From Rhodocollybia butyracea (taxonomy: Eukaryota > Basidiomycota > Agaricomycetes > Agaricales > Omphalotaceae): a stretch of DNA of 64,000 nt. Of this stretch, positions 20,501 to 64,000 are shown piece after piece. The notes beneath the pieces are model-generated. The model made no database searches and had not been told where the DNA came from. It was given only the letters and a program-made list of their open reading frames with translations. How positions within the stretch are numbered: position 1 is the stretch's first letter; every line of letters starts with the position of its first letter. Made by a program: the position numbers and the translations under genes. The DNA is taken from NCBI GenBank assembly GCA_015501585.1, contig JADNRY010000025.1, positions 352,979 through 416,978 on the forward strand, in the 5' to 3' direction.

Positions 20501-20800
20501 CTTTCCGTTCGGACTCTGTTGCAATGGAGGAGAGCTAGAGGAGGTTTCTGGGCGAGAGCCCGATTGTACTTCAGTTGCGACCACGTTGGTTACTGTTTGT
20601 TGCGCCTGTGTAGTTTTTGGCAGAGCAGAAGTGGATGATGATGGCTCGGCTTGAGGCTGCTGCTGGGCCAAATGATGACGGATATGATGTTCCAAGCTAT
20701 GGTTAGCTGGAGCAACGCCAGCAGCGTATTGTGTATACTTGGCAAGCGTAGTCATAGTAGCTGGGTGTATATTGTTCAAGGCAGAAATGGGCGATTCCAT
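17558..20800 (-). CDS. Iron-responsive GATA repressor (SREA/URBS1/Fep1 type)
   Basis: Four exons on the minus strand: 20800-20594, 20534-20414, 19692-18853 and 18534-17558, giving 714 residues. Finger 1 is [19 protein letters not shown] followed by LVCNACG. Finger 2 is [19 protein letters not shown] followed by NICNACG and [11 protein letters not shown]. Between them is the cysteine-rich linker [20 protein letters not shown], diagnostic of fungal iron-sensing GATA repressors. After finger 2 come a basic stretch [11 protein letters not shown] and a C-terminal coiled coil ([20 protein letters not shown]). The family represses siderophore and iron-uptake genes when iron is replete. Both fingers are interrupted by an intron at the same codon, after CNAC-G. 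Exon 1 to exon 2 needs a 59-bp intron with a weak GTAACC donor; without it a frameshift would be required. Confidence 0.88.
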
Positions 20801-21027
20801 TGAGAACGACTATATCAGTGGGTGGAATTACGAATAGCAAAGTCAGATAAATTCTTAGATGAAAAGCCAACGCACGAATTCGTCCAACCAAATATATGGA
20901 TCTTGAGTTTGAAATATTTCCTCTTCGTGAAATCAGCTTCAGATAGCTGGTTCAGCTGCGGGGAAAGTTAAACAAGAGGGTCAACAGAGTTAGTTGGTGG
21001 ACAAGATCCAAACGAGCGGGGAAGATT

Positions 21028-21187
21028 AGATAAACGTAATTTACTTGTAACCCAAGCAATTTGATTGGCCGAGTCCTATCAGTTATCGCACATGAACCCA
21101 CGCGATTATCCAATCTCGGCCTTTATCGGGTTTCAGTAATCTTGACCTATAGTAGCGGTAGGTTTTCAGATGATCCGTAGATAGATA
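21028..21187. promoter_or_regulatory. GATA-motif cluster upstream of the GATA repressor
   Basis: Within 160 bp, 230-390 bp upstream of the repressor ATG, are AGATAA (21028-21033) and TTATC words at 21083, 21106 and 21123, then a short GATA tandem run around 21180. Autoregulation is inferred, not shown. The rest of 20801-21467 shows nothing else. Confidence 0.4.
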
Positions 21188-21467
21188 GATAGAAATACAC
21201 GGCTCAGACAGTACATGAAATAGATATTGGACTCGAAGCTTCTAAAAGTTCATGTATACTCAGTAATCAATGGCCAGCTACAAGATAATTTCTCTCGGAG
21301 AGCCGCCTCCTCGGACTTAGTAGGCTGTAATCATTTTGCTGCGTTGTGAGCGGAGCTCAAGTATCCAACAAAAGTAAGAAACTATTCAAGTTTAGCATCA
21401 GTTGGCCACAAGCAAAGAATAAGCGGCAGTATGATTATGAGAAAATATGTGTAGTATATTAGAAGCA

Positions 21468-22558
21468 TCACGCCGACACCGACGCCTTTGACACAGGGTT
21501 CGTCTCACAATCCACAGACCAATGGCCTTCTCCCTGACATTGTGTACATTTTGAACGCGGAGGATACTCCTTCCTCACCGGGCAATCTTCCAGTCTATGA
21601 AGGTTCCCACAGCAGGGGCAAAAGCCACGTCGGAATATCTCTCTAACACTCTCGGTCCTTGCCTTTCCTGGAACGCGAACGAGAGACGGGAGGCCAGTCC
21701 TGGAAGATTCAGCGGGGTTGGTAGAGAAAAGGAACCGGTCTCGGAACATCTGGTCGATGAGGAACGCTAAGCGGATGTCGCGCAAGGTGAGCCCTGGGAT
21801 GAGCTGGCCTTCCGGAAAAGCTTTGAAAAGGTAAGTTGTGAATTGGCAAGCGGGAAGGAAACGAAGCGACTTACTGGTAACAGCCTGCGCTGGGAAGTAG
21901 TTTGGATGTCTCAAATCCAATATGGCTTTTGGGATAACGGCCTCGTGAGTGACGGTTTTGACGTCGACTCGGTGAGTCTCGACTCTGTCTTCATCCTCAG
22001 GCAGATTATCTTTAAAGTTAGCTGCTACAGAGCGGAGGGCGAATGGATTATGCTGAATGGAAAAAAGCATGAGTAAAAGAATTAAAAGAAAAGTTCCACT
22101 GTGAGTTGCCTTTTCTTTTTCCGCAATCTTTTTAACCTCTTCAATGAACCCAGCTGCTCCTGATTCGGCGGTGAATCTATATCTTCCCCCAAGTACCAGC
22201 CCATTTCCAAGTACCTTAGCATCGCTAGGAATTTTCAGACCCAAGGATGCACGCTTGTATGTTTTACCGAAATACGGACGAGACTTCCATGGGTATAGTG
22301 AAGCAAGCGGGTAGACATATGTCTCCAGTTCCGAGGGGCTAAGCCATGGTGTAGGACGAGCTTCGGGACGAGGAGGTATATCCGGTAAGGAAGCTACGAG
22401 TGCGGCAGTTTGTGCGCGTACGAAGCGTTCTGCGGAAAAGTCATTAACTACCTTTGCCGTGAAAACGAAATAGACGTACCTTTTCTAGTAATAACTTCCG
22501 AGATATTCCGCTGCAGCCTCAGCGTTCTGGGGACCGGGCGCAATGTGGTGAACAGCAT
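21468..22558 (-). CDS. Pterin-dehydratase-like protein with C-terminal zinc knuckles
   Basis: Four exons on the minus strand: 22558-22480, 22429-22110, 22052-21875 and 21820-21468, giving 309 residues. The start MLFTTLRPVPRTLRLQRNIS is basic and Ser/Arg-rich like a mitochondrial presequence. The centre resembles 4a-hydroxytetrahydrobiopterin dehydratase (PCD): GGRYRFTAESGAAGFIEEVK, KIAEKEK joined to HNPFAL by a GC-AG intron, VDVKTVTHEA and GLTLRDIRLAFLID. The usual H-H-P is H-N-P here. The C-terminus has two CCHC-like knuckles, CPCCGNLHRLEDC and CTQCQGEGHWSVDC, unusual for PCD. Reading through the GC-AG intron also stays in frame, so the two isoforms cannot be separated by sequence. PCD recycles pterin cofactor; the role of this fused form is unknown. 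Confidence 0.6.
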
Positions 22559-24660
22559 GGAAATTTTCAAGTCAAGTATAGACAGTAGTGTGACCGTAAC
22601 AATGGCCTGACACGTGACGCTTTGTGGTCGCTGCGCGCGCTTACACCAACTTCATACTTTCAAGGGAAAGTCCATAACTAATCAATATTCAATCCGCAAC
22701 TTCACTTGTTTGTCTACTGTGATGGCTTCCTTCCCAGAATTATGTGCTGGGATGCTAATATCATATGACATTACGCGGTTTCAGAGCATACCCAGGTTCA
22801 AGAAACTGCGTTCGTGCAGATCTTTGGACCATAACGAAAAATTTTCTTTACCTCTCCGAGACTGCGCTTACATGCACCGCCTACACTGTCCAGTTCTCAT
22901 ATCTATGCAATCTCCGTGGCGAATTGGTTGCGAGGAGAGGTGATGAACCCAATTCCAACACGGAGTTCATGCAAGGTACATTGCAGCAATCATCGGTTCG
23001 ATACTTATCAGGATGGATTCTGTCTCTATGAATTCGAAGATCCGCCCCTCGCTTGCTATAACCGAAAACAAGGTCGCAAAATGATCTTGATGTGCTGGGT
23101 CGCCTCAGTGATGTGGCTCGTTTCAATGCTCTTTGTTCTGATCCAGTCGTCAGTGCTCGCGCGTCTCTTCCGTATCCCTCGGATACGAGATTTCGGTACA
23201 ACGCTATGAGTAGCGCCGGTGGCTAGGCCGCCGAAGCACTGTGGTCAATCACCGCATCGTGCTGTGTGCCTCACCAATTCTTAACTTAATATATCATTTC
23301 AGATGCTACGGATAACCCGGGACCCTACTCTGAGGGATGTCAAAAAATCCGCTACTTCAAGATTGGCAGTGGTACTAGTAGTGGTTCTGTATCAAACCAC
23401 CGCCAAAGGGGAGAAAAGATGCAAAACTGGTGTGGCTGCTACGTTCATTTGATCAGTTTCACGACAGCCCAAACTGGAATAAGGGCAGCAGAATCAAACG
23501 GCTGTATGAAACGAAAGGAAGGAACCTATGGAGGTGATTGATTACAGCGCTTGCTGCACATAGCGTCAGGGGATGGAGCTGGAAGGCACAGAGCTCCAAT
23601 CGACTGGAAATCCCCTTGGATATGATATTCCAAGGTCTTCACCTCAACTGAGGCAGATATAGGTATGTTTTCGCAAGCTTCGAGTTGGTTCTTGTATCGT
23701 CGGATCTGACTCGGCGGTCAGCAGTCCCGGTCGCTTCTATGCTTCAATGCAATGTCCATGAGTTAAGAAACTTTATTGTCCACCGGGTCAATGGTTCCCA
23801 TCGCTTCCAGAATTGCAGTCGGCTTCGACACCTGCGCCCCGTTGGTAATTATGTTGGGCTCAGGACACCCAACGGAGATTATCTAACGATGTGTTACTAG
23901 AAGGCTGTCCTATGTTGAACGTTCAAACGATGGGACTTTACCGGTGCACCGCTGAAGTGCGAAAAGCTGCCATTGGTTTACTGTGTAACGCCTGAACGAG
24001 AGATGATATCAGCTTGACAAAATTTCAACGAAGAGATAGATGCTCCATGCAGCAGTCAAGCTACGTATACAAGCTTCATGATGCTGAGGCTCCATCTCGA
24101 CTTCCCTCTGTATCAGAGGCAGATCGACGTATAGACTTGCTCTTTTTCCATCATAGCATTACAACTTGAAGTATCGCCGAACTATTTAGTCAAGTGCTCT
24201 TTGCCAATCATTTTCCGAAATAAGAGCATATGTCTATTCCTTCAACCACGTCAACTTGTGATGAAGACATGTAGCTGATTGCCTATGGTCCAGGGTCCAG
24301 GCCACGAACAGAGGCTTGAGCTCACAAATCACATATCCGTTGCAGGTGAGCCGGGGATGCGAAGTAAAGAGATAGCATCCAGCAACACAACATCCTATTG
24401 GCAGACAACAGCTATGCCAAAACTTGATCGCAAAGCTAAAAAGCGATGCGATTTTCTTTCTTACATAATCCGTAATTTCGGGGAGTCATTTGTCCCCTCT
24501 AATTAGCTCTTTGATGTATATCTACTGCATGGCTATGAACGCAAGGTATAAAACATACAGCGCTACCAGCCAAACTCCGGTTGTCTCCTCAAAGGTTTCG
24601 GTTTTCTTTCCTCGGTCGTCTGGTTACCTGTACCCAGTATAGCCTTTTTCCTATCATCCC
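22559..24660. other. Intergenic, no gene recognised
   Basis: About 2.1 kb. A + strand stretch near 22914-23200 has an ORF with one hydrophobic segment (MCWVASVMWLVSMLFVLIQS) but no family resemblance and no convincing splice structure. Confidence 0.35.
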
Positions 24661-25327
24661 ATGAATTCACAGCACGCATCTGTATCAAGTCTATCAAATA
24701 CATCACAAACTATGAGCAGTGGAGAATGGGCTAATTTTTCGCGTGTAACTGCAGTAAGCACATTCCATATATATATATTCATTTTCGAAATCTGCAGTAC
24801 TTGCATAAATACCTTGCTGTTTGCTCCGTTCTCCTCATCCACTTCAAAAATACTTACTATGCATCCTCCGGCCTTCTATCAGCGTGCCCAAGGAGACGTT
24901 CCCTCTGCGGTCCGCAACCTCCTCCTATCGATGAAGCAGTTGCAGGACGTGTTAAAACGCTGGAGTGTCTCCCAAGCCTCCGAATCCCAAGTCAGCGACG
25001 TCTACGTCCAAATTGGCACCGATTTCAATACTACCATGCACGCTTTCAGTTATCACAAAATCGATCTCAGGTTCGTGTCCATCGCCGTATGTATACACGT
25101 TCACTGAAACGCTCCGCGTTTTCAGTGACATACATTCTGTACCCAAAGATCTTCGCGTCGTGCTCGAGCAGTGTCTCGCCGAAGATCCCTCCCCCCAGGT
25201 CCTTAATGTGTTCATGCCGCAGATCCGCCAGGTCCTGTATAGACTTTTGCACGGCCTTCAGGCCAAGCAGGACGCGTGGCGCGCGGTAGGCGGACAAATG
25301 CCTATGATACCGTTTGACCCTCGGTGA
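24661..25327 (+). CDS. Stand-alone Bud6/Aip3 N-terminal-domain-like protein
   Basis: Three exons: 24661-24753, 24883-25070 and 25126-25327, giving 160 residues. After a short Ser-rich start the sequence reads GDVPSAVRNLLLSMKQLQDV, VSDVYVQIGTDFNTTMHAF, DIHSVPKDLRVVLEQCLAED and IRQVLYRLLHGLQAKQDAWR. This is the pattern of the N-terminal domain of Bud6, the actin- and formin-associated polarity factor. The C-terminal actin-binding half of Bud6 is absent, and a stop follows at 25327. An alternative start at 24859 (MHPPAFYQ) would keep the same domain without exon 1. Cell-polarity function is inferred. Confidence 0.65.
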
Positions 25328-25849
25328 GGGATAAACGAACTCCGGATCGTTGTACAGGTACATATTCCACAGGCGGTGCAGAAGATAGAAGATATATCGT
25401 GAGTCGAGAGTTGTTTGTACTACAGAAATTACGAGCGTTGCTCTACTACGATACCCTGATGTTGTATTCTCTACTAATTCCCGCAACCATACTCAGTGCG
25501 TTGCTTGTGTATCTTTCCTTGTATTTACTTGACTGTTATCATGGCTTGGCTTCTGGGGTCTCTGCTCCCGAACCTTCCAACTCCTGACTTATTTACCTAA
25601 ATTATTTATTTATTTATGTATTCGAACTTGTTATTATAGAGCGGACAGGTAGAGGCGTTTACACGGAGGAATGAATATTCTATACCCAGCGATATCACAT
25701 TCTTTTTCCAGCGACACCCAAAAACTTCTGGTAGCCCTTTAGCAAAGTTTGTTGGGGGGTTGGTGGAGCAGTGTACACAAAATCAGGATCAAAAGGGACA
25801 GAAAAGCAACGTTTAGAATGCCCCGGGATACGTACTCGTAAATAAGATG
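25328..25849. other. Intergenic between convergent genes
   Basis: 3' regions of the Bud6-like and HET genes. Contains a short TTTA run near 25600. Nothing else seen. Confidence 0.4.
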
Positions 25850-27916
25850 TCAATCGTATCCCATGCGTAAGAAGCCGTCTTCGTGCATGTACAACCTTCT
25901 AGCTGTGATCATGACCTGGAACCGCTTAGACCCCAGCCCCCCAACCATCATCCCACGAACGGACATGAGCATGCCAGCCTCCTTCTTTTCAGTTGACTTC
26001 GACTGGGAAAGGTAATTCCTATCGCCGACAAGCCTTACCCCTATCGAATCAACCCTGTTGTACAAGTCACAGATATCCTTCGCAAATTTTGGGTCACTTT
26101 CCGACCCTGTCAGAATATCTGACCACATCCTATCGTTGTCGATTCCCAGTATAATAGCAAACCCTTTGAAAAAGAGAATGCCTGACATACCACTGTGTTC
26201 CAGCAGAAGATTTAGGCCCGTATCTTCGCCAGACGGCTTCCAACAATCACTGGGGTATGCATCCAAAGGGGAGATTCCAGCGTCCAGTGTCGCCTCGGAT
26301 AAGGATACAGCTAATGTGTACTGGGGTGTTTGAGTGACACCTGGAGCTATGTCTGGGATCTTCCGGGCGATGCGGATGTTGATCATATAGTCGCGGCCCT
26401 TGGGTCGCGCCTCCACTACGATTATTTTGTCATCTGTCCAAAATTTCGATGTTCTATCCACATTCTTCCACCACATCTCTTCATGTTCATTGTCATGAAG
26501 GTAGGAACGTCGTCCGTCCGTGAATTCCACCTCCTCAAAATCAACCACTATATTCAACCAAATGCTGTCTCTGTGCTTTCCAGCCAAGACGACAAACAGC
26601 TGTCTGGTCTGCTCATCTCTGAAAAAGAGAGCACAGGATGAGCCATTATTCAGAGGGGGAAGAGCTATCGTGTTACTGTGCGTGTGATCGTTCGTCTTAT
26701 AAGCTCCAAACAATTTATACTGCAGAAGGGTGCCATCAGGAAAGGAGAATAATATTCGTCGGTGGTCATCAACAACTCTGGAAAGCTCAGGATCCCTCGT
26801 CCTGAACAGTAGTGGGTCGTACTTCCATTCTTTTTCATCACCTAGCTTCGAGCCCTCTATCAAGTCGAGTCTGTCCAGATTTGTTCTCTCAAACTGGTGA
26901 CTGTTTGGTGCCACCGAACGCTTTACATAAATGACTACAGCCTCTGGTTTCCCCCGCCGGCGGCAACTCAGAGGAGCCCAGAATTTATGATAGTTATCTA
27001 CGTCCAAGGGGAGGAAGACAAATGCCGCAAGAGGCCTGAGGGGAAGGTGGATCTGTAACCCAATGTTGGTTATTGAGTACGGCAGCCGTTGGTAGTCCGT
27101 CCTAGGAGTGGTCGGCTCGTACTCGCCACTGTCTTTAAAATTATCTGGACTGGCGGCGAGTAATCCACCAAACCTATCGTCGGACGTCCAGGCAAAAATT
27201 GTCTGGTTGTCGGACACCTTCAATATCTCCTCCTGTAACGTGGTGAAGGCATGTTTTCCTTCTCCATAGATCGTCGGTAAGAAAACACCAAAGAGCCCCA
27301 TCAGCGAGTACGCCCTGTCTTCCACGCGTGTGGTCTTCCTTCTGGCAGCCCAAGACATCCTCTGCGCAACGCTGATCTCAGTGACTGGAACGTTCATCAA
27401 CAGAATCCTTGATGGGATCCCAGTGATAACGGTGATAATCTCTCGCAAGGTCGCTTTAGTTCCAATGTCATTCCAATCGTTTGCTAAGAAGGTGACTGCC
27501 CTTGGCGCCAACAACTCCTGCAACGTCCATCCCCTCGTAAACCATTTAGAATCACGGAACGCTGTTTCGAAGGACGGGCCGGGTGGCACGTCCGCCAAGT
27601 AGGCGTAGCAGACCTCCGCTTTGCGGTAATATTCGTACATCGAGTTGATCGCCTCGGCGAGCTCGGCGCTGCTAGTCTTATCGATGCAGCAGGTATCGAT
27701 CCAAAGGTACTCGTAATCGTCACTGCGTGCCAGCTCGCATGCTCGTACGATTTTGATGTAACCTTTTTGATCAGGCTTTATGCTGGATAGATTTTGCATC
27801 TGCTGGAAGGACACTTCCGCGTCATCCCATACATGGGAAAGGATCGCATATGGTGGTATCTCCTGCTCACTTGTGAAGTTGACGACCTTCGGGTTACTAG
27901 TGGTGAGGAGTCGCAT
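25850..27916 (-). CDS. HET (heterokaryon incompatibility) domain protein
   Basis: A single uninterrupted minus-strand ORF of 688 residues from MRLLTTSNPKVVNF. The same frame stays open upstream to an ATG at 27991. The HET domain occupies roughly residues 20-170: IPPYAILSHVWDDAEVSFQQ, KIVRACELARSDDYEYLWID, TCCIDKTSSAELAEAINSMY and the block around WFTRGWTLQELLAPRAV. RMSWAARRKTTRVEDRAYSL, then MGLF, closes it. MRLL is the typical start of the family, so I prefer 27916. HET proteins act in non-self recognition and can trigger cell death; the partner is unknown. The C-terminal 450 residues show no other domain. The upstream ATG is only 10 bp from the palindromic repeat array. Confidence 0.88.
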   Translation of the reverse strand: MRLLTTSNPKVVNFTSEQEIPPYAILSHVWDDAEVSFQQMQNLSSIKPDQKGYIKIVRACELARSDDYEYLWIDTCCIDKTSSAELAEAINSMYEYYRKAEVCYAYLADVPPGPSFETAFRDSKWFTRGWTLQELLAPRAVTFLANDWNDIGTKATLREIITVITGIPSRILLMNVPVTEISVAQRMSWAARRKTTRVEDRAYSLMGLFGVFLPTIYGEGKHAFTTLQEEILKVSDNQTIFAWTSDDRFGGLLAASPDNFKDSGEYEPTTPRTDYQRLPYSITNIGLQIHLPLRPLAAFVFLPLDVDNYHKFWAPLSCRRRGKPEAVVIYVKRSVAPNSHQFERTNLDRLDLIEGSKLGDEKEWKYDPLLFRTRDPELSRVVDDHRRILFSFPDGTLLQYKLFGAYKTNDHTHSNTIALPPLNNGSSCALFFRDEQTRQLFVVLAGKHRDSIWLNIVVDFEEVEFTDGRRSYLHDNEHEEMWWKNVDRTSKFWTDDKIIVVEARPKGRDYMINIRIARKIPDIAPGVTQTPQYTLAVSLSEATLDAGISPLDAYPSDCWKPSGEDTGLNLLLEHSGMSGILFFKGFAIILGIDNDRMWSDILTGSESDPKFAKDICDLYNRVDSIGVRLVGDRNYLSQSKSTEKKEAGMLMSVRGMMVGGLGSKRFQVMITARRLYMHEDGFLRMGYD

Positions 27917-28064
27917 GATACTGTAACTTAAGTATGGCGCATACTCACACGTGCTCTCGCACTGCCACTGTCCATATATACAACGATTCATACTTTAGAC
28001 CACGATCCCAGATAACCTCGTATTGTTAGAGTTCTGGTGCAATATCCAACTCAGCCATAAAACC

Positions 28065-28371
28065 GGTTTTATGGCTGAGTTGGATATTGCACCAGAACTC
28101 TAACAAAACATCTGACTCTGAGAGTACTACCATGTAGTAGTATCTCAGATCCTATGTCCCTCGGATGTACTCGAGTAGCCGGTTATATGCTGAGTGGGCA
28201 CCATCCCACTGGTCTACCTTGACCTGGTCAGGTTACTAATTACTGGCTCAGCGGCTCTTACAACCCGTAGGACTTGAACCCACGACCTCAAGGTAAACCC
28301 TCACTCAATCTATCTCAGAGTCAGATGTTTTGTTAGAGTTCTGGTGCAATATCCAACTCAGCCATAAAACC
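28065..28371. mobile_element. 307-bp TIR element with tRNA-like core, unit 1
   Basis: Left arm 28065-28123 is the exact reverse complement of 28313-28371. The interior, read on the minus strand, carries a T-arm-like segment GTGGGTTCAAGTCCTAC, whose flanks pair as a T stem, resembling a Pol III B box. There is no coding capacity. Best described as a MITE-like element with a tRNA-derived core. Confidence 0.75.
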
Positions 28372-28434
28372 ACGATCCCAGATAACCTCGTATTGTTAGA
28401 GTTCTGGTGCAATATCCAACTCAGCCATAAAACC

Positions 28435-28741
28435 GGTTATATGGCTGAGTTGGATATTGCACCAGAACTCTAACAAAACATCTGACTCTGAGAGTACTAC
28501 AATGTAGTAGTATCTCAGATCCTATGTCCCTCGGATGTACTCGAGTAGCCGGTTATATGCTGAGTGGGCACCATCCCACTGGTCTACCTTGACCTGGTCA
28601 GGTTACTAATTACTGGCTCAGCGGCTCTTACAACCCGTAGGACTTGAACCCACGACCTCAAGGTAAACCCTCACTCAATCTATCTCAGAGTCAGATGTTT
28701 TGTTAGAGTTCTGGTGCAATATCCAACTCAGCCATAAAACC
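28435..28741. mobile_element. 307-bp TIR element with tRNA-like core, unit 2
   Basis: Near-identical to unit 1. The left arm shows TTATATGG where unit 1 has TTTTATGG. Its right arm abuts the left arm of the truncated third unit with no spacer. Confidence 0.75.
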
Positions 28742-28852
28742 GGTTTTATGGCTGAGTTGGATATTGCACCAGAACTCTAACAAAACATCTGACTCTGAGA
28801 GTACTACCATGTAGTAGTATCTCAGATCCTATGTCCCTCGGATGTACTCGAG
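28742..28852. mobile_element. Truncated TIR element, unit 3
   Basis: Begins with a full left arm but stops after TGTACTCGAG, where it switches directly to AAACCGGTTATATGGCTGAG, a solo arm. Intact units have a related GCCGGTTATATGCTGAG at that point, so the switch looks homology-driven. Confidence 0.65.
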
Positions 28853-28941
28853 AAACCGGTTATATGGCTGAGTTGGATATTGCACCAGAACTCTAACAAT
28901 TGTTAGAGTTTTGGTGCAATATCCAACTCAGCCATACAACC

Positions 28942-29248
28942 GGTTTTATGGCTGAGTTGGATATTGCACCAGAACTCTAACAAAACATCTGACTCTGAGA
29001 GTACTACCATGTAGTAGTATCTCAGATCCTATGTCCCTCGGATGTACTCGAGTAGCCGGTTATATGCTGAGTGGGCACCATCCCACTGGTCTACCTTGAC
29101 CTGGTCAGGTTACTAATTACTGGCTCAGCGGCTCTTACAACCCGTAGGACTTGAACCCACGACCTCAAGGTAAACCCTCACTCAATCTATCTCAGAGTCA
29201 GATGTTTTGTTAGAGTTTTGGTGCAATATCCAACTCAGCCATATAACC
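28942..29248. mobile_element. 307-bp TIR element with tRNA-like core, unit 4
   Basis: Full-length unit with the same tRNA-like interior. It is followed directly by one more inverted arm ending at 29289. Confidence 0.75.
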
Positions 29249-29410
29249 GGTTTTATGGCTGAGTTGGATATTGCACCAGAACTCTAACACGTATAACGAC
29301 TACTACCATCGCGTATTCTCCTGTTGCCTGAAGCCTAGCTTCGCCTCTAGAATATAAGGTGGTCCTGTCAATGCGTGCATCCATTCGTTAGTGTTCTGTC
29401 GGGACTGAAC

Positions 29411-31689
29411 CCCAGTGAAAAGCCGCACCGAGCTGATCTGGGAATTTCCGGCATATCCGAGTAGCTCTGGGTAGCGCTGGGCAGGTCTGTGTACAGCTGG
29501 CCAAATGAGGGGCAAATTTTGTTTCAATTCAATCCATGTTACACCCATGAGAGATATATTCTGAATAATCGAGTTCGAGTTTGAGCTAGTAGCGCCGTGT
29601 GCAACTTTTGAGCTCAAGTATTTGAGTTAGTCTTTCGCTTTGTCTTTGTCACTCCAACTCAGAGTCCCAAATTTCTGGCCCGGCCCAACATGTGATAAGC
29701 TTCGACTTTAAAAAAAATTCCATCGCTCTTTCTCTCTTCACTGCCATTTCAACTTCTCCAAGTGCAAGCTGGCTCAAATTCTCGAGATTTACTCTTCAAC
29801 ATATCCTCAACCCACTTTAAACTCTTGACTCAAGCATGGATTCATTGGGCTAGGCTATTCCCAAGGTGAGCTATCTTAACCTTTTCTTGAATAATCTCTT
29901 GAACAATTTTTTTTTTTTTGATTAGCTCTCACTGGTTCGTTGATGTTGTATCACGCTGGTACGCCGCATTCTACCACTTTCATCTTTTCCTCTATACGTC
30001 AAAGGTGAGCTATCTTTACTTATTCTTTGGAGCTCGGTCTTTGGATAACCTTCTCTCGCTGTAGCCCGTTAGCCTCTCAGAGTTGTTTCAACAAGTCAAT
30101 ATCCCACTGTGCCAACATGTCATATAACACTTGTAACCATGCACTGTAGATGTAGCACTGCCCTTACACATGTTTCTCTGTAGTCAGCTTAATGTATGTA
30201 TATGTAGTATGTTTCGTAATTCGTAGTAGTTGATATCTCAATACATTCACTCAGACCATCCCAGACCATCATAATTTCAGTAATATGTAATAAGTATTAT
30301 GTGCAGCTAAGCCCAGATGATCCCAGATGATCCCAGAGAAACTCAATTGTATAGAAAAACCAAATTTTCATTTTCAGTGTGATTTTGGTCAGATATACAC
30401 GGCCAAACCCTCCCTTGCGGCTCGGGCTGAAAGGTTCCGGATGTCCCCAGGCTAAATATCTTTTGGCGCTGAGCCGCAAAAAATTGAAACCGAGTCTGAA
30501 ATAATTAGTTACCGCTTAGGACGAACTTTTTTTGTACTATATTGGTCCTACATTGCACAAAGCACTCAGTGCAATACTGCTAACTGTGAAAAACAATGTC
30601 CCGCCCAAAGGTTTGTGATGCGTGAGCTGAACATGTGAGCTTGTGATCTGAACATGTGAATGATGAGTCACGTATGTTCAACTTCTTTCTCTCAACGTCC
30701 ATCATCTTTGCATCAACGCTTATCGTCAAGTTGTCGGCGCTCAGAGCTACGCATGAGGATCGTCCGAATTTCACATGTCAATATCGCAAGTACAAAATCA
30801 AGCAACATTCTTCAAGAATCGGCGTTTGTAGCTTCAAGGCAAGGCGGAATCTCAAACGTTCTTCATGGCAAAGCGGAAGCTCAAACTTTATCAAAAATGA
30901 AGCAACTTCAACGCTCTTCAGGTTTAATTCTGATATCTATCCAGCCGACTTCAATTTGAAGACCGATGCTCAAAGTTGTCTCTATCTGTCTGCGTGCCTC
31001 TAGCTGTGCTATCTCAAGACCAGGCTGCTGTTGCTGCGCTACAGTTATTGACGCGGTTTGTTCTTTTTTTCATCAGTTTTCTCACACCTCTCACTATTGG
31101 TTTTCTAACGGCTTTCCTGCAGTACAACTCACGAGTTTCCAACGGTATGTTTGCATTTCTCCTTAGAAATCATTACTTGCTTATCAATGAATCTAGGTGA
31201 ACGATATGTTTACGTGGGTATACAGAGTAGTAACTAATAGCGATGTGCAACGTGTAGTAACAGTAGCTAGAAATATAAAGCATTTTTGGAACGAGAACGA
31301 AAACAGAGGGAAGAACTAGAAGAGCTAAAAGAGCCGGAACAATCAGGTGAGGCAGTGCACAGTAATCCCAAGCACAACGCTCAATTAATACCCAGCATAA
31401 GCTTCTTGCACCTGAGCTTAATTTGCGTTGACCACAGCTGAGGGCTAAATTACGGTTTTTAGACCTAGCTTCGGTTATTTCATGCTTGGGATCAACAGGA
31501 CTGGGCTAGCCTCAGTTGGATAGATTGTCACGGCAGTGTACCCAGATATACCCAGACCAGCCCAGACCACAACATAGGAAACGGCCAAATTCTGGGATTA
31601 TCCGCAAGACGGATAATCCCAGTCCATCCCAGATATTCCCAGCACATGTCGGCACATGTCAGCTCAGGCCGGCGGGGGTTTTCACTGGG
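29411..31689. mobile_element. Non-autonomous DNA transposon, copy B, split by an insertion
   Basis: Second copy of the 15687 element, same ends CCCAGTGAAAA and TTTTCACTGGG. The flanking duplication is ACTGAAC (29404-29410 and 31690-31696), extendable leftward to GACTGAAC, which proves insertion by transposition. The element is interrupted at a GATATA site by a 1.14-kb insertion; copy A shows the intact site. G and C runs near both ends are one base longer than in copy A at about ten places. Antisense ORFs in both copies are not conserved in frame. Confidence 0.8.
30398..31538. mobile_element. Nested insertion inside transposon copy B (Tc1/pogo-like?)
   Basis: Bounded by comparison with copy A. 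It begins CACGGCCAAACCC and ends TTGTCACGGCAGTG, with TA on each side, as Tc1/mariner superfamily elements leave. The right end read inward (CACTGCCGTGACAA) looks like a mariner-type terminus. The left end matches it only weakly. No transposase ORF is visible, so it would be non-autonomous or degraded. Confidence 0.5.
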
Positions 31690-58197: not shown

Positions 58198-58670
58198 TGA
58201 TTCCTGCGTCTTAAATCAATGAGACATACAAGAGAGTGGTAAAGTCACAGGTCAAGTTAAGATTTGTTTTCTTCTTGTACATGTAAAGACCTTAAAACAG
58301 ACGGATATAAGTTGCCAACCGTTGAATCTTGGGGTCGCCGTCAGGGATGGCCTCCTCAAGAGCAAATTGTAGCTGCCGATGAAGATTGAGGCTTGATGGC
58401 TGGAAGTTGAACATACAGAATTAGTTCAGCACTGAAATCAAAAGCTGCATTCGTACTGGCAGTAGTTGTTTCTCGACTGTTGGCTGGAACAGCAAAATAC
58501 GATTAGATAGGCAGAAGTTTTGAGTGGATAATTTCGTAGGCCTGTAAGTTATTTCTGGAGGGTGTGCCGACGTTGTACTACAAAAGCATACGTCAACAAC
58601 AACAAAGACCTAGCCAAAGGCAACACAGATTTTGCAAGTAGCCTTGGACTTCAGGCCTCAATACTCAACG
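58198..58670. other. Intergenic before the Gypsy element
   Basis: No gene seen. Short inverted repeats are not dense here, in contrast to the adjacent element. Confidence 0.4.
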
Positions 58671-58927
58671 TGTAACGCCTCCTCCCCATCTTGCCTGATT
58701 CCCTTCCGGCCGCGCCTTATGGCGCGGCCTTAACTTTTGTCGCATCGCGACTCTTATCTTATCTTATCTTACGATTAGATATCATTTCTATTCTATTCAT
58801 TTCGATTACTATAACTAGTCGAATTACATAAATTACTGTAGTTCTTCTACACTACGAGTACACAATCGCATAGCCTTTGTCAGTGCTCTTTCGTGTGAAC
58901 GTAAGACTCTCGCCTAAGGGCGTTATA
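58671..58927 (+). repeat. 5' long terminal repeat (putative end)
   Basis: Begins TGTAACGCC. The right end is placed at GGCGTTATA (58919-58927), a one-mismatch inverse of the start, as expected for LTR termini. It contains strong hairpins, e.g. GGCCGCGCC/GGCGCGGCC at 58708-58729. The primer-binding site is not recognised, so the 3' boundary is tentative. Confidence 0.5.
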
Positions 58928-59363
58928 CTTTTTTGAGCATCAAAAAATCTTTATTAAAAGATTGTGTGCACAAAACTACGAGAAGTAATAACTACTCGAC
59001 TAGAATTATAAAGTAATCTAAACAATTATCACCACTCTTACTCCGCATCAAAAGCGCCAAGCAAAATCAACAAAAGTTCGATCACATGGACCAAAACAGG
59101 AACTCAGAGAAGTCCAACGAGATGCGAGCAATCGCCACTCACAACATGGTGATGCCACGTCACCAATAAATTCACACGACGGTAGTCATAGTTCACGACT
59201 ACCACCGTATGCAGGACAAAGTCCTGAAATTGAGCTGTCTAACGACAGGCAGAATGTAAGTGATGTCGAAGACATCCGTGAGCGTGCGTCGAATACGACG
59301 CACGATAAACTATCTGAGTCTAATGAGTCTCAGGGAGCCTTTAGCAATAAAGGCTTCGCAGAC

Positions 59364-60653
59364 ATGAATGACCTCAAGGAGGCCATGCAAGAACTATCGC
59401 AGTTCTATGGACAAGGTGCGCAAGCACTAAACCGTATAGCTACCGCGGTAGAACGTTGGTCCGGACCATCCGGAATGAGTAAGTCCAGACCGTTACCAGA
59501 TACTGGTAACCTTACGAGCATAGCAATGCCCGTAGCCCGACCGCCAGCAGTAACGCCAGCGGTATTACAGGCGGCATTACCGCCTGACAACGAACAAACA
59601 AGTCGTTGGGAAGGCATAAAGCCTACCACACATCCGTTCCGTCAAACGATGGGAATATACGAACCACCAGGTGCCCGAGATCGGAGACCTAAAGAATCTT
59701 TCAAGCCAATACATAACGTATGGCATACAGATTCATTCGATCCGATAGACCCACCTGAAGGTGAAGGTCTATTTGACAACCTTGAAACCGAGGTTGTAGA
59801 AGAAGGTGATTGCCAAAGCGATCCCTATAATAACTTTGGCGACTTTGTAACGATAAGGAAGAATCAAACTTCCCAAACGAACAAAACGCCAAATAAAGGA
59901 GTTCATGCAAATGAAAGCCCAGTCATCGACTTATCAAACTCGACAATGGGTAAATCAAATGAACCCCAGACGCTTCGTTACTCTCCAGTAATAAGGCAAA
60001 ACATCTTCACAGGAAGAATGTCTCCGGCCCCAAGAGGACCGAGATCGTTACCTACTCCGCCTACAATTAGTATACGGAAGAATGACCCCATCCAACGGAC
60101 AGAGTCAACAATAGTGGGACCATTGAGAAATGAGTCCCTTATCAAAGCTCACGAAGCATTCATTCAAGAATTGAATGAACATTATCGTAAAAACCAACCA
60201 TTGGTTGATGTTAGTATTCCTACACAAGGAATACAAACAAAAACGATAGCACCGTCAGCACCGATAACGGTACGTATGGCGCAAACACAGACAACGACAC
60301 AAGTCGTCTGTCAACAAAACACGCAAGGACCTGGTCCGAGCACAATGGTACTACATACAGTAGTACCACCCGCACAACAACAGTTACCTCCGGTAACTCT
60401 TACACAGCAAGTACAAACAGTACCTGCTAAAATGAAGGCTTCTGTAAAGAAAGAGCCAATTACTACAGTGATCCCACCAGTAACAATACAACAAGCAGTA
60501 CCACAAACAGTAGTACTACCAACACTGCCAGCTACAATAGTACAGGCATCGCCAATAGTAGTACCAACACCGGTACCACTGATAAATGAAGTACAGAATA
60601 ATACTGCACTGACGGCGATAAGATCGCCTAGTATGCCGCTCCTGAACGGATAG
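59364..60653 (+). CDS. Gypsy element ORF, N-terminal Gag-like region
   Basis: 429 residues, starting MNDLKEAMQELSQFYGQGAQ. Mostly hydrophilic, Pro/Thr/Gln-rich in the last third (QTTTQVVCQQNTQGPGPSTM). No domain recognised; position suggests the N-terminal Gag or linker part. It ends at a stop 65 bp before the next ORF, which is in another frame. Confidence 0.6.
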   Translation: MNDLKEAMQELSQFYGQGAQALNRIATAVERWSGPSGMSKSRPLPDTGNLTSIAMPVARPPAVTPAVLQAALPPDNEQTSRWEGIKPTTHPFRQTMGIYEPPGARDRRPKESFKPIHNVWHTDSFDPIDPPEGEGLFDNLETEVVEEGDCQSDPYNNFGDFVTIRKNQTSQTNKTPNKGVHANESPVIDLSNSTMGKSNEPQTLRYSPVIRQNIFTGRMSPAPRGPRSLPTPPTISIRKNDPIQRTESTIVGPLRNESLIKAHEAFIQELNEHYRKNQPLVDVSIPTQGIQTKTIAPSAPITVRMAQTQTTTQVVCQQNTQGPGPSTMVLHTVVPPAQQQLPPVTLTQQVQTVPAKMKASVKKEPITTVIPPVTIQQAVPQTVVLPTLPATIVQASPIVVPTPVPLINEVQNNTALTAIRSPSMPLLNG

Positions 60654-60718
60654 CGAGCGATTGGGAAAGTCGCGTAGCGATTCAGAGACAACACAACTAT
60701 AGTCTCAGAACATCCGGT

Positions 60719-61564
60719 ATGATACCGGATGCATTCCCTGACCAGATGGTAGGATTCAATGACGACGGCATCCCCGTTGACAAACTAACTACTCCACGAG
60801 AAGTTTGGGATCGGGAGTATAATAATACCTCCTCAAAGCAAGCTCAATCGTCGCAACCCTACAAGGGTGGCAGAGTTAGGTATGCCTCCGGCACACCTGG
60901 AGATCCTGATGATAACTCCGACAGCTCTGACTCTAGCGATAGAGACAAGAAGCGTAAAGGTACGCCTTGGTCTGATGAATCATCAGACGATAACGACAAG
61001 GAGTCCGATTCTGACTCCTCATCTAACGATTCCTGGGTGAATTATATAATTCAACCACAGGCAAATCTTAGTAAATCGCAACAGCGTAAGCTGCGACGAA
61101 AACTTGCAGCTAAACTGCGAGAGAAAACAGGGGATGACGAACATTGTGCCCGATGGAAACACCAGGTACACAGAGTGTATCGACGTATGGTACGTCATGC
61201 AGTGGGGAAACCCGTCACAACTACAGACGGAGCTAAGAATATCAAGCTCCCAACGCCTGAGGCATACAATGGTACGCCAGATGTAGAAATTTTCGAGAGA
61301 TGGTTAGCCATCCTTCTCAGATGGATGGCTGTAAATTGCTATTGTGGTAAAGACCACGATAAAACACGCCTCCAGGTATTGGGGTTATTCCTCAAGGACA
61401 AAGCCCTTGATTGGTACAACGACGAAGTCGATGGACCTCATAGGATCACAATATCCTGGAAATTCGAAGACGCCATAATAGGAATCTTCGATAGATGCGT
61501 ACAAGCATCTACAATACATCAAGCTGCTCAGCAGTTTGAAACAAGTAATATACTCGCCCGCTAA
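60719..61564 (+). CDS. Gypsy Gag, retrotransposon-gag domain
   Basis: 281 residues. After an acidic Ser/Asp-rich stretch (SDSSDSSDRDKKRKG) comes the retrotransposon Gag core: PTPEAYNGTPDVEIFERWLA, KTRLQVLGLFLKDKALDWYN and WKFEDAIIGIFDRCV. It forms the capsid-like particle in this family. The Gag core continues out of frame at 61536-61787 (YHATLLRWAARM, RFINGLP), so a frame lesion lies near 61560. Confidence 0.75.
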   Translation: MIPDAFPDQMVGFNDDGIPVDKLTTPREVWDREYNNTSSKQAQSSQPYKGGRVRYASGTPGDPDDNSDSSDSSDRDKKRKGTPWSDESSDDNDKESDSDSSSNDSWVNYIIQPQANLSKSQQRKLRRKLAAKLREKTGDDEHCARWKHQVHRVYRRMVRHAVGKPVTTTDGAKNIKLPTPEAYNGTPDVEIFERWLAILLRWMAVNCYCGKDHDKTRLQVLGLFLKDKALDWYNDEVDGPHRITISWKFEDAIIGIFDRCVQASTIHQAAQQFETSNILAR

Positions 61565-61845
61565 AGGCATACGAGATTATCATGCCACCCTATTAAGATG
61601 GGCGGCAAGGATGCAGCAGCCGCCTAATTCGGCTGCGATGCGCAATCGATTCATTAATGGGTTACCCATTACGATACTGAAACATCTAGCGAACCAAGCA
61701 TCGTTCCAGAGTATGCTAAACTCAGAACGATGGTCAAAGCGGTTACTAGACTCGAGGACAATCGTCATCTCGAAGATTACTACGTGACTTCACGTAAGAA
61801 AACCGAGCTCTGAAGACTCGAAATATATCACTAAGCGAATACGCC

Positions 61846-62586
61846 GTGAAGCAAAAGTACAAACCAAGTGGTAGTACAGGACCATATAAATATGGTCCAG
61901 TGCTAGTCAAAGGACGACCATTTCAACTGGTGAAGCATCGCTTCTCCAATAATAAATCGAAGCCCGTACGCACTGAGAATACACTCAGAAGCACGGGACA
62001 GGTAACGAACTCTAAGAGTTCAAGACCTAAACCGTCTAGTGACACAAGCACTAGAAAACTCTGCTACGGATGTGGCAAACCGGGACATTTTGCAAATGAC
62101 CCTACTTGTGAACAATACGGGCAACCCCGCATGTATGTCATCCAAGAAGAGGATGAACAAGAGGAGATAGAATCTCCTCCGATAGTCAAAGAAGAGATTC
62201 AAAATGATGAATCTCCGAACATAACTGATCCTAATGAGAGGAATCGTCCGAAGGAGAATACACCCTCGAAACCATACGAGGATGAATATGTCGGTCGACT
62301 ATATGACGACAACGATGACTTTAGCAACTACTATGGTCGCATAATGGAACCGGTTCAGACCGATTCTGAGGATTTTGAAAATCCATTAGATGATTGCGGA
62401 CCACCGGTCTGCATAGAAGAGGATATGGATGATGATTTATTCTTATCCATAGATCCTCACTATCATTCATTCATAATGAATGAAGATCGGTTGACTGCTA
62501 TCAGTCACCATGAAGACGAAGAACCAAAACCTGAAAAAGGTAAAGGTTTTCAAACTTCAAGTAAACAAATGCCTGCGACCAAATAG
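61846..62586 (+). CDS. Gypsy Gag C-terminus with zinc knuckle
   Basis: 246 residues. A basic N-terminal part leads to CYGCGKPGHFANDPTC, a CCHC nucleocapsid knuckle with six rather than four residues between His and the last Cys. A long acidic tail follows (DEQEEIESPPIVKEEIQND). Confidence 0.75.
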   Translation: MKQKYKPSGSTGPYKYGPVLVKGRPFQLVKHRFSNNKSKPVRTENTLRSTGQVTNSKSSRPKPSSDTSTRKLCYGCGKPGHFANDPTCEQYGQPRMYVIQEEDEQEEIESPPIVKEEIQNDESPNITDPNERNRPKENTPSKPYEDEYVGRLYDDNDDFSNYYGRIMEPVQTDSEDFENPLDDCGPPVCIEEDMDDDLFLSIDPHYHSFIMNEDRLTAISHHEDEEPKPEKGKGFQTSSKQMPATK

Positions 62587-62638
62587 AGGTCCAGCGAAAG
62601 ATCGTCGTCCAATGACAGTGATAGTAAATATCGGGGAG

Positions 62639-63070
62639 TCGAAGCGTTTACGCTATTCGACTCCGGATGCACAATAGAGGCATTAAGCCCCTCGTTTGTT
62701 CGCATAGCGAACATAAAAGCTTCATCAGCTAGCTGATCAGCATTCACTACAGCTAGGAACTGTAGGAAGTAAAGCCAAATTCAATTTTGGCACAGTGTAA
62801 ATACCTCCTATGGAGGTATTGATGAAAAAGTATACTTCGACATTATAAATATGAATAGATACGATGCCGATCCTAGGAACGCAATTCATGCGTAAGCATG
62901 GAAAACAACTCGACTTCGATAAGGATGTAATCCTTATCAAAGGAAAGGTAGCACCATATCTTTCCGTGGGGGAGGACGCAATGGAATTTGCGCGCCGAAC
63001 CGCAATGAAAAAGGAAACCCTTAACGGGAAATTCCAAGAACGGAAACGCAAGCTAGTAAAGAGTGACTAG
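62639..63070 (+). pseudogene. Gypsy aspartic protease region, frame-broken
   Basis: VEAFTLFDSGCTIEALSPSF has the retropepsin D-S-G active site. After stops and frame changes, LGTQFMRKHGKQLDFDKDVI (62878 on) matches the domain end. Confidence 0.7.
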
Positions 63071-63117
63071 CTGCAGTTTCAACTTCAAAGAAGTCGAAAA
63101 ATAACGAAATTCCAATA

Positions 63118-64000
63118 GTGGAAATTGAGACGATAGTGGACGAAGAACATCTTCGTTCAGAATTACAACGCTCCGCAAGGAGCTTTCCGCACCATTTCCC
63201 AGTAATACTGGAGAAATATGATGAAAATGATTCATCACAAACACCGAAAACAACTATGTTATCGGCAGAAGACCTCGACAATTATGTCGAAGTCTTACAA
63301 GAAATATCTCGTGAAATGTTTCCCGAGAGTGTGCGCAAACAAGTTAAGCTTAGAGCTCAACGAGAAAAGGAGAAGGACAATTCTCCTGAATCCGAACCCG
63401 AATCAGGGGACGAGGAATTCAAGGCAGTTCAAGAGGACAGCCCATAGACTTTTCCTCGCTACAAAAGCAAGGACCATTTACGGATGATCAAATACCGATG
63501 ATCCACGCGATGATAATCGATGAGTATAAAGATATACTCGGGGAGTACCAGAGGTACTCCCACCTACGAGAAATCAATCATCGAATTAAACTAATCGATG
63601 AACAACGGCGATATAATTATTATATGCCTAGGTGCCCAGTATCTAAAAACGCAACTTACTGATAAAATCGGTAAATACACCAGATCAAACTGGTGGATAC
63701 AGCAACCTGCTCCGCAGGCTGCACCTATGCTTTGTATTCCAAAGAAAAATGGTACACTACGTACCATTATTGACTATCGTCAACGGAACGATAACACGGT
63801 AAAGGATGTCACTCCTTTCCCTGACCAGGATAACATCCGAACGGATGTAGCCAAACATAAGTATCGATCCAAGATCGATCTTAGTGATGCGTACAAACAA
63901 ATTCGTACTGAAGCAGGCGATGTGTGGAAAACAGCATTCGCCTGCATCTTCGGGACATTCGTCAGTAATGTCATGATGATGGGGGATTGTAATGCCCCAG
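63118..64000 (+). CDS. Gypsy pol: linker and N-terminal reverse transcriptase (partial)
   Basis: The first segment (63118-63447) is an acidic linker (NYVEVLQEISREMFPE). After a frame change the reverse transcriptase begins: CIPKKNGTLRTIIDYRQRND, SKIDLSDAYKQIRTEAGDVW and KTAFACIFGTFVSNVM, ending at the window edge before the catalytic YxDD. This is the standard Ty3/Gypsy fingers-palm sequence. Confidence 0.8.

What the first reader, a model, noticed from the sequence alone, without database searches (positions are those of the whole stretch)
58708..63964. A Gypsy retrotransposon whose whole sequence is a chain of short perfect hairpins
Reading the element base by base, almost every 20-40 bp holds an inverted repeat. 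Examples are CATCCGGTAT-g-ATACCGGATG at 60711, TTCATTCAA-gaa-TTGAATGAA at 60159, AATACCTCC-tat-GGAGGTATT at 62800 and GGGAGTACC-aga-GGTACTCCC at 63541. I count at least 14 with arms of 8 bp or more and loops of 4 or fewer. My rough expectation for 5.3 kb of random sequence is about 0.4 (5 loop sizes x 4^-8 x 5330). They run through LTR, leader, gag, protease and RT regions and disregard reading frame. The ADH relic and host genes do not show the pattern. I know of no described element like this. Possible causes: selection for a fully hairpinned genomic RNA (packaging, RNAi evasion), or repeated intramolecular template switching during reverse transcription or repair that turns near-palindromes into perfect ones.
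Basis: seen in the sequence. Interest (0 to 1): 0.93.

Follow-up and report, generated by a model that had tools for sequence, protein, structure and literature searches.

The report
Retrotransposon built of short hairpins
A group of mobile genetic elements in a fungal genome is packed along its length with short perfect hairpins that look maintained by natural selection, like a denser version of the genome-wide RNA folding known from some viruses.

Summary
Window 58671-64000 holds 17 perfect hairpins (arms >=8, loop <=4) against 0.27 in dinucleotide shuffles and 0.64 per 5330 bp in the rest of the window. Synonymous-codon shuffles of sister copies do not reproduce it. The element is a copy, cut by the contig end, of a multicopy Ty3/Gypsy family, A. 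Related families B (about 73% DNA identity) and D (LTR-gag-LTR) of the same genome share the trait; four other Gypsy lineages there do not at that strength. Mean folding-energy excess is 39-48% on the + strand. Between A and B, fourfold sites in stems differ at 32-38%, outside hairpins at 54-58%, in loops at 65-74%. One-sided stem changes are 35-42% below codon-phased shifts; double changes are mostly complementary; changes do not cluster on one arm; hairpins avoid overlap. This favours selection for a chain of local hairpins over template switching. Closest known: genome-scale ordered RNA structure of +RNA viruses. Its purpose (shielding from RNA silencing, compaction) is inference; which strand folds is unresolved.

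The parts
58671..64000 (+). Ty3/Gypsy element, family A, cut off at 64000 by the end of contig C550
   Evidence: 100% own locus, 42 matches of a 601-bp probe in the genome at 94-100%; contig length equals window end
58671..58928 (+). 5' LTR, about 258 bp, begins TGTAACGCC
   Evidence: same stretch found at both ends in L019 and L025
58708..58729 (.). hairpin in LTR, arm 9, loop 4
   Evidence: D has a different 10-bp hairpin at nearly the same LTR place
58929..58947 (.). hairpin just after the LTR, arm 8, loop 3; probable primer-binding region
   Evidence: near-identical hairpin in D; role inferred
59283..59304 (.). hairpin, arm 9, loop 4
59336..59355 (.). hairpin, arm 8, loop 4
59364..60653 (+). 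open stretch of gag (429 aa listed)
59492..59510 (.). hairpin, arm 8, loop 3
60159..60179 (.). hairpin, arm 9, loop 3
60711..60731 (.). hairpin, arm 10, loop 1
60719..61564 (+). open stretch of gag, capsid-like part (281 aa listed)
   Evidence: no Pfam hit for the whole gag frame of L010
60970..60988 (.). hairpin, arm 9, loop 1
61038..61053 (.). palindrome, arm 8, loop 0
61655..61671 (.). hairpin, arm 8, loop 1
61846..62586 (+). open stretch with a CCHC zinc knuckle
   Evidence: motif named by eye
61879..61898 (.). hairpin, arm 9, loop 2
62161..62179 (.). hairpin, arm 8, loop 3
62463..62484 (.). two overlapping hairpins, arms 9, loops 3 and 1
62800..62820 (.). hairpin, arm 9, loop 3
62918..62938 (.). 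hairpin, arm 9, loop 3
63064..63069 (+). TGA CTA, in-frame stop between gag-PR and pol frames of sister copies, presumably read through
   Evidence: 16 of 20 A loci scanned, and B
63541..63561 (.). hairpin, arm 9, loop 3; kept in B with one changed pair
63598..63999 (+). start of pol with the first part of the reverse transcriptase, cut by the contig end
   Evidence: RVT_1 in pol of L010

Best explanation
A clade of fungal Ty3/Gypsy LTR retrotransposons carries a chain of short local hairpins (mostly arms of 5-9 bp, small loops) along its whole sequence, coding and non-coding. SHOWN here: the excess; its restriction to this clade among the lineages tested; its independence of protein sequence and codon use; low change at paired fourfold sites beside free loop sites; mostly complementary double changes; avoidance of overlap. 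INFERRED: the hairpins are kept by selection acting on a single-stranded form of the element (full-length transcript and/or minus-strand cDNA), single hairpins coming and going while the density is kept. INFERRED, weaker: the benefit is shielding and compaction. Stems of about 10 bp or less would hide the RNA from antisense and small RNAs in a host with RNA-silencing genes without giving duplexes long enough for Dicer, and would condense the genome for packaging. I put selected structure at about 0.75 and shielding/compaction as the main benefit at about 0.35; the figure below is for selected structure with some such cis function.
For: Excess over dinucleotide and codon shuffles. Families B and D share it, four other Gypsy lineages do not at that strength. 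Fourfold differences A/B: stems 23 of 71, loops 17 of 23, flanks 47 of 86, rest 99 of 182; with B's stems 39 of 102, 15 of 23, 58 of 100, 74 of 137; 0 of 364 sham shifts as low in either. One-sided stem changes 65 against 111.7 and 96 against 147.9, 0 of 1085 shifts as low. Both-changed pairs complementary in 15 of 23 and 19 of 31. Overlapping hairpin pairs 9, 0, 3, 3, 1 against 30.4, 9.5, 20.0, 10.4, 5.7 at random. MFED 39-48% on +. LTR hairpins of A and D at nearly the same place with unrelated sequence. Present in D, in which no pol was seen.
Against: Stems with one mismatch do not favour G-T over A-C in A (12:27) and B (6:16), only in D (15:9), and the - strand folds nearly as well in A and B; this is not what selection on sense RNA alone predicts. 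Pairs changed on both sides are not more frequent than in shifts (23 against 20.2; 31 against 24.1). Most hairpins are not intact in the other family (35 of 44 and 43 of 56). Private changes in single A copies are slightly rarer in stems than outside (34 of 1907 against 267 of 11602 CpG cells, p 0.18; 28 of 17733 against 190 of 84891 other cells, p 0.09), so a small mutational part is possible. Function rests on no experiment.
Confidence: 0.65

Rival explanations
1. Mutational origin: this clade's reverse transcriptase, or repair, often switches template inside short imperfect inverted repeats, so that one arm becomes a copy of the other. The arms evolve in concert, without benefit.
For: Stems are Watson-Crick and nearly strand-symmetric. 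The mechanism is documented for short inverted repeats in yeast genes (PMC8604942, passages), and that paper cites short inverted-repeat regions as more conserved than their surroundings. Concerted evolution tied to protein constraint could also lower fourfold change. In L023 one hairpin differs from L010 mainly on one arm (3928).
Against: No clustering of A/B differences on one arm: 25 of 53 same-arm pairs (expected 26.6) and 39 of 96 (expected 48.4); 48 of 65 and 73 of 96 one-sided changes are at codon position 3. Loop sites change more and stem sites less. Hairpins avoid overlap. Other Gypsy lineages in the same cells lack the trait.
Confidence: 0.2
2. Double-stranded DNA or cDNA is the selected form: hairpins or cruciforms in minus-strand cDNA or integrated DNA act in reverse transcription, integration or chromatin.
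For: No G-U preference in A and B; A-C outnumbers G-T 43 to 18 in their one-mismatch stems. Folding of the - strand is nearly as strong in A and B.
Against: A-C is also favoured by base composition: A about 0.33, C 0.23, G and T about 0.22 on the + strand of A. D leans the other way (15 G-T, 9 A-C; + strand z -7.4 and -9.6, - strand -5.6 and -5.2). Only 6 of 85 triloops are of the GNA type known (recalled) to be stable in DNA.
Confidence: 0.12
3. Chance, base composition or codon usage.
For: None found.
Against: Dinucleotide and synonymous-codon shuffles, rest of the window, other Gypsy lineages.
Confidence: 0.01

Closest known systems
[quoted passage not shown] abstract and passages seen)
   Same: Sequential, largely unbranched short stem-loops through coding regions; little dependence on the bases used; folding-energy excess over dinucleotide-preserving shuffles; paired sites less variable; long uninterrupted duplexes avoided.
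   Different: Here an LTR retrotransposon; stems are mostly perfect and Watson-Crick, G-U share 0.045-0.075 on +; MFED 39-48% against 15% for SARS-CoV-2 and 23.4% as the highest vertebrate RNA virus in that paper; LTR and leader included.
Ty1 and Ty3 genomic RNA of yeast mapped by SHAPE (PMC11381356; passages seen)
   Same: LTR-retrotransposon RNA with stable folded regions.
   Different: There stable regions make up to 30% of the RNA and are discussed as separate motifs; no chain of perfect inverted repeats is described in the passages seen.
Inverted-repeat arm homogenization by template switching in yeast genes (PMC8604942; passages seen)
   Same: Gives perfect short inverted repeats in coding DNA.
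   Different: There detected as multinucleotide changes on an arm in single genes; that signature was looked for here and not seen.

Membership tests
Ty3/Gypsy LTR retrotransposon | RT, RNase H and integrase in Gypsy order | tested here: met
   RVT_1, RNase H, H2C2, rve, SH3_Tf2-1 in pol of sister copy L010; the window copy stops inside RT
Ty3/Gypsy LTR retrotransposon | LTRs, polypurine tract | tested here: met
   LTR at both ends in L019 and L025; GTGGGGGAGGG before the 3' LTR of L019
Ty3/Gypsy LTR retrotransposon | primer-binding site for a host tRNA | tested here: inconclusive
   conserved post-LTR stretch seen, primer not identified
GORS | folding-energy excess along the genome over dinucleotide shuffles | tested here: met
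   A 42.2%, B 39.0 and 40.4%, D 48.3 and 47.9% on +
GORS | paired sites less variable | tested here: met
GORS | sense RNA is the folded, selected strand | tested here: inconclusive
   G-T/A-C and strand z mixed
GORS | +RNA virus genome; effect on host sensing and persistence | not testable with these tools
   the element is a retrotransposon; no experiment
Template-switch homogenization | changes clustered on one arm | tested here: not met
   25 of 53 (expected 26.6) and 39 of 96 (expected 48.4) same-arm pairs

The most novel reading that the evidence does not exclude
A distinct genome architecture for retroelements: a selected, sequence-agnostic chain of perfect Watson-Crick mini-hairpins over LTR, gag, pol and tail, nearly twice as strong in folding-energy excess as the most structured vertebrate RNA virus of PMC7642675, that keeps RNA and cDNA compact, unpaired with other copies and hidden from homology-dependent silencing in a genome full of copies.
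Probability: 0.3. Interest if true: 0.92.

Novelty: new variant of a known kind. Interest (0 to 1): 0.78.

Why it matters
Genome-scale RNA folding is discussed mainly for +RNA viruses, and its purpose is debated. A retrotransposon clade with an extreme form of it, beside Gypsy lineages without it in the same genome, is a natural experiment: silencing, packaging and transposition can be compared with and without the trait. It also means that synonymous sites of such elements are not neutral, which biases dating and selection tests.

Tried and rejected
Chance, composition, codon usage: rejected. Genome-wide mutational bias: rejected by other Gypsy lineages and the rest of the window. One-arm template switching: not seen. 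Known RNA families: no match of 58400-64000 at E <= 0.1 among 4227 Rfam models. DNA-stable GNA triloops: 6 of 85. Self-priming: longest complement found between LTR and the 50 nt around its end is 8 nt. Relatives in IMG/VR: none. Bacterial genome records gave six distant Gypsies (33-39%, L046-L051), none enriched like A; L047 and L049 have a mild excess at arms >=8 (4 against 0.55 and 4 against 0.65). L034 was first taken for a 54% relative; it is a decayed A copy (87% DNA identity). My first element length (7.7 kb) was too short: L010 runs 9157 bp without reaching a 3' LTR. Double changes inside family A (18 of 18 both-changed pairs complementary) were set aside, since 16 of the 18 are C-G/T-A exchanges and can be paired CpG decay. 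DNA of the 50-60% protein relatives could not be reached. In one search the two D pieces overlap by 121 bp, so a few D counts there may be doubled; removes the overlap.
Full report
OBSERVATION. The four quoted hairpins are where stated. In 58671-64000 there are 17 perfect hairpins with arms >=8 and loop <=4 (two overlap) and 42 with arms >=6. Thirty dinucleotide shuffles give 0.27 and 5.6; the other 58.67 kb of the window give 0.64 and 7.2 per 5330 bp. Fifty synonymous-codon shuffles of each of three ORFs of sister copies give 0.54-0.80 hairpins with arms >=8 (loop <=8) against 11-20 observed. The excess covers loops of 0 to about 18 nt. Over 21.1 kb of A, B and D, arm lengths (loop counted as at least 3) run 201 of 5 bp, 128 of 6, 73 of 7, 46 of 8, 19 of 9, 4 of 10, 1 of 11, 1 of 12, against 83, 21, 5.7, 1.7, 0.5, 0.15, 0, 0.05 in shuffles.

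WHAT IT IS. The window ends at a contig end, so the copy is truncated. A 601-bp probe finds 42 matches in the 95.6-Mb genome, all 94-100% identical; the tool calls such counts lower bounds. LTRs are about 258 bp. Sister copy L010 has a gag-PR frame of 1349 codons, one stop, and a pol frame of 1215 codons; the stop is TGA followed by CTA in 16 of 20 A loci scanned and in B. The window copy's frames are more broken. Pol of L010 has RVT_1, RNase H, H2C2, rve and SH3_Tf2-1 domains; its gag has no Pfam hit. 712 proteins match pol at E <= 1e-60; of the 120 listed one is 97% identical and the others 51-60%, the named ones from Mycena, Phanerochaete, Phlebia and Trametes. That the host is an agaricomycete is inferred from this.

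WHO HAS IT. Hairpins with arms >=7 and loop <=8 in 3.6-kb RT-IN stretches: B (L029, L030) 37 and 38 against 1.7 and 1.25 in shuffles; A (L014) 23 against 1.6; L032 20 against 1.4; decayed copies L031, L033 and L034 13, 25 and 21 against 2.25, 2.15 and 1.6; Gypsy lineages whose RT is 48, 44, 40 and 37% identical to A (L035-L038) 2, 5, 4 and 3 against 1.35, 0.95, 2.05 and 1.4. The 44% lineage has a mild excess: arms >=6 16 against 5.85 and arms >=8 3 against 0.2; upstream of it arms >=6 22 against 9.05 but arms >=7 1 against 2.15. L032 holds a nested element, D, of about 3.7 kb, LTR-gag-LTR with no pol seen, gag about 66% identical to A over 672 bp; its first 1.5 kb has 14 hairpins with arms >=8 against 0.4. 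D is repeated: 40 of 227 first-look candidates were scored and all 40 listed at 92-100%. Outside A, B, C and D, 132 kb of window and fetched loci carry 0.78 hairpins (arms >=7) per kb; the densest 1-kb windows there hold 6 (an insertion in L021, 654 bp unmasked) and 4 (window 28001-29000, L024, L036). The tail of A after pol (L019) also has it: 18 with arms >=8 in 3.8 kb against 0.5.

FOLDING. Mean MFED of 350-nt fragments (20 dinucleotide shuffles each), + strand: A 42.2%, B 39.0 and 40.4%, D 48.3 and 47.9%; - strand: 32.5, 29.4, 34.6, 25.7, 26.2%. Five stretches of four other Gypsy lineages: -0.2 to 15.0% on +. Window 20-30 kb: 13.4%, raised by at least one extreme fragment (maximum 108%). 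PMC7642675 (abstract and passages) reports, by a similar calculation, about 15% for SARS-CoV-2, 7-11% for HCV, and 23.4% as the highest in vertebrate RNA viruses. Fragment spacing and shuffling program differ, so this is a rough comparison.

EVOLUTION, A AGAINST B (pol, 1105 codons, 80.6% identical residues). Stems were defined in one family without looking at the other. Fourfold sites differ at 23 of 71 in stems, 17 of 23 in loops, 47 of 86 in 12-nt flanks, 99 of 182 elsewhere (stems of A); 39 of 102, 15 of 23, 58 of 100, 74 of 137 (stems of B); none of 364 sham shifts is as low. One-sided changes in stem pairs: 65 against 111.7 +/- 8.3 and 96 against 147.9 +/- 9.6; none of 1085 codon-phased shifts is as low. 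Hairpins without any change: 6 of 44 against 1.5 (3 shifts reach it) and 8 of 56 against 1.9 (1 shift). Pairs changed on both sides are not more frequent than in shifts (23 against 20.2; 31 against 24.1) but are mostly still complementary: 15 of 23 and 19 of 31, against 2-8 of 9-18 and 6-11 of 23-30 with slid partners. Overlapping hairpin pairs: 9, 0, 3, 3, 1 against 30.4, 9.5, 20.0, 10.4, 5.7 at random placement. LTR hairpins of A and D lie at nearly the same place with unrelated sequence.

TEMPLATE SWITCHING. One-arm conversion predicts that differences between a hairpin and its imperfect homologue lie on one arm. Same-arm pairs are 25 of 53 (expected 26.6) and 39 of 96 (expected 48.4); 48 of 65 and 73 of 96 one-sided changes are at codon position 3. 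A copies differ from each other mainly by C>T and G>A, mostly at CpG. Both-changed pairs between L010 and copies 2-6% away are all complementary (18 of 18, shared ones counted per copy), but 16 are C-G/T-A exchanges that paired CpG decay could give, so I do not count them. Against me: concerted evolution tied to protein constraint could also lower fourfold change; private changes in single copies are slightly rarer in stems (p 0.18 at CpG, 0.09 elsewhere); and PMC8604942 (passages) cites short inverted-repeat regions in bacteria as conserved.

WHICH STRAND. Selection on sense RNA should favour G-U over A-C mismatches. In stems of 7 or more pairs with one mismatch, G-T:A-C is 12:27 in A, 6:16 in B, 15:9 in D; among one-sided A/B changes 18:25 and 17:29. 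D folds better on + (z -7.4, -9.6) than on - (-5.6, -5.2); A and B nearly equally. Unresolved.

FUNCTION. The trait covers LTR, leader, gag, pol and tail, ignores the sequence used, and is present in D, in which no pol was seen: it looks like a property of the nucleic acid in cis. The genome has Piwi (22 matches), RdRP (26) and RNase III (5) domains; a complete Dicer was not tested. Shielding from RNA silencing plus compaction is my preferred reading and is not shown. Nine searches of the open-access library ran; no title or abstract start in their listings describes an LTR element like this. Subscription papers and preprints are not held.

Noticed in passing
63064-63069; L009-L028, L052: In-frame TGA CTA between gag-PR and pol, kept in 16 of 20 A loci scanned and in B; TGA CTA is a known readthrough context (recalled). 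In L010 it lies in a short hairpin.
   Followed up: partly
L016:1-1149 (-); also L014, L028 after pol: An extra open frame after pol (383 aa in L016), probably coiled-coil; only a sub-threshold Pfam hit, PUMA_CC E 0.0059.
   Followed up: partly
L032 and L053 (C816:208487-212207): Nested LTR-gag-LTR element D with no pol seen, repeated in the genome, perhaps a non-autonomous partner.
   Followed up: partly
A copies, L009-L028: Copies decay mainly by C>T and G>A at CpG, as expected from cytosine methylation.
   Followed up: partly
58929-58947 and the same place in D: The stretch after the LTR is a hairpin kept almost letter for letter between A and D; the primer is unknown.
   Followed up: partly
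window 20001-30000, with 28001-29000 hairpin-richer: One 350-nt fragment folds at about twice its shuffles on both strands (MFED up to 108 and 136%), and 28001-29000 has 4 hairpins with arms >=7.
   Followed up: no
L052, gag region of B: The translation has a run of more than 20 lysine codons at the end of one open stretch of gag.
   Followed up: no
L021 about 2160-2813: An insertion inside an A copy with 6 hairpins (arms >=7) in 654 unmasked bp, perhaps another member of the clade.
   Followed up: no
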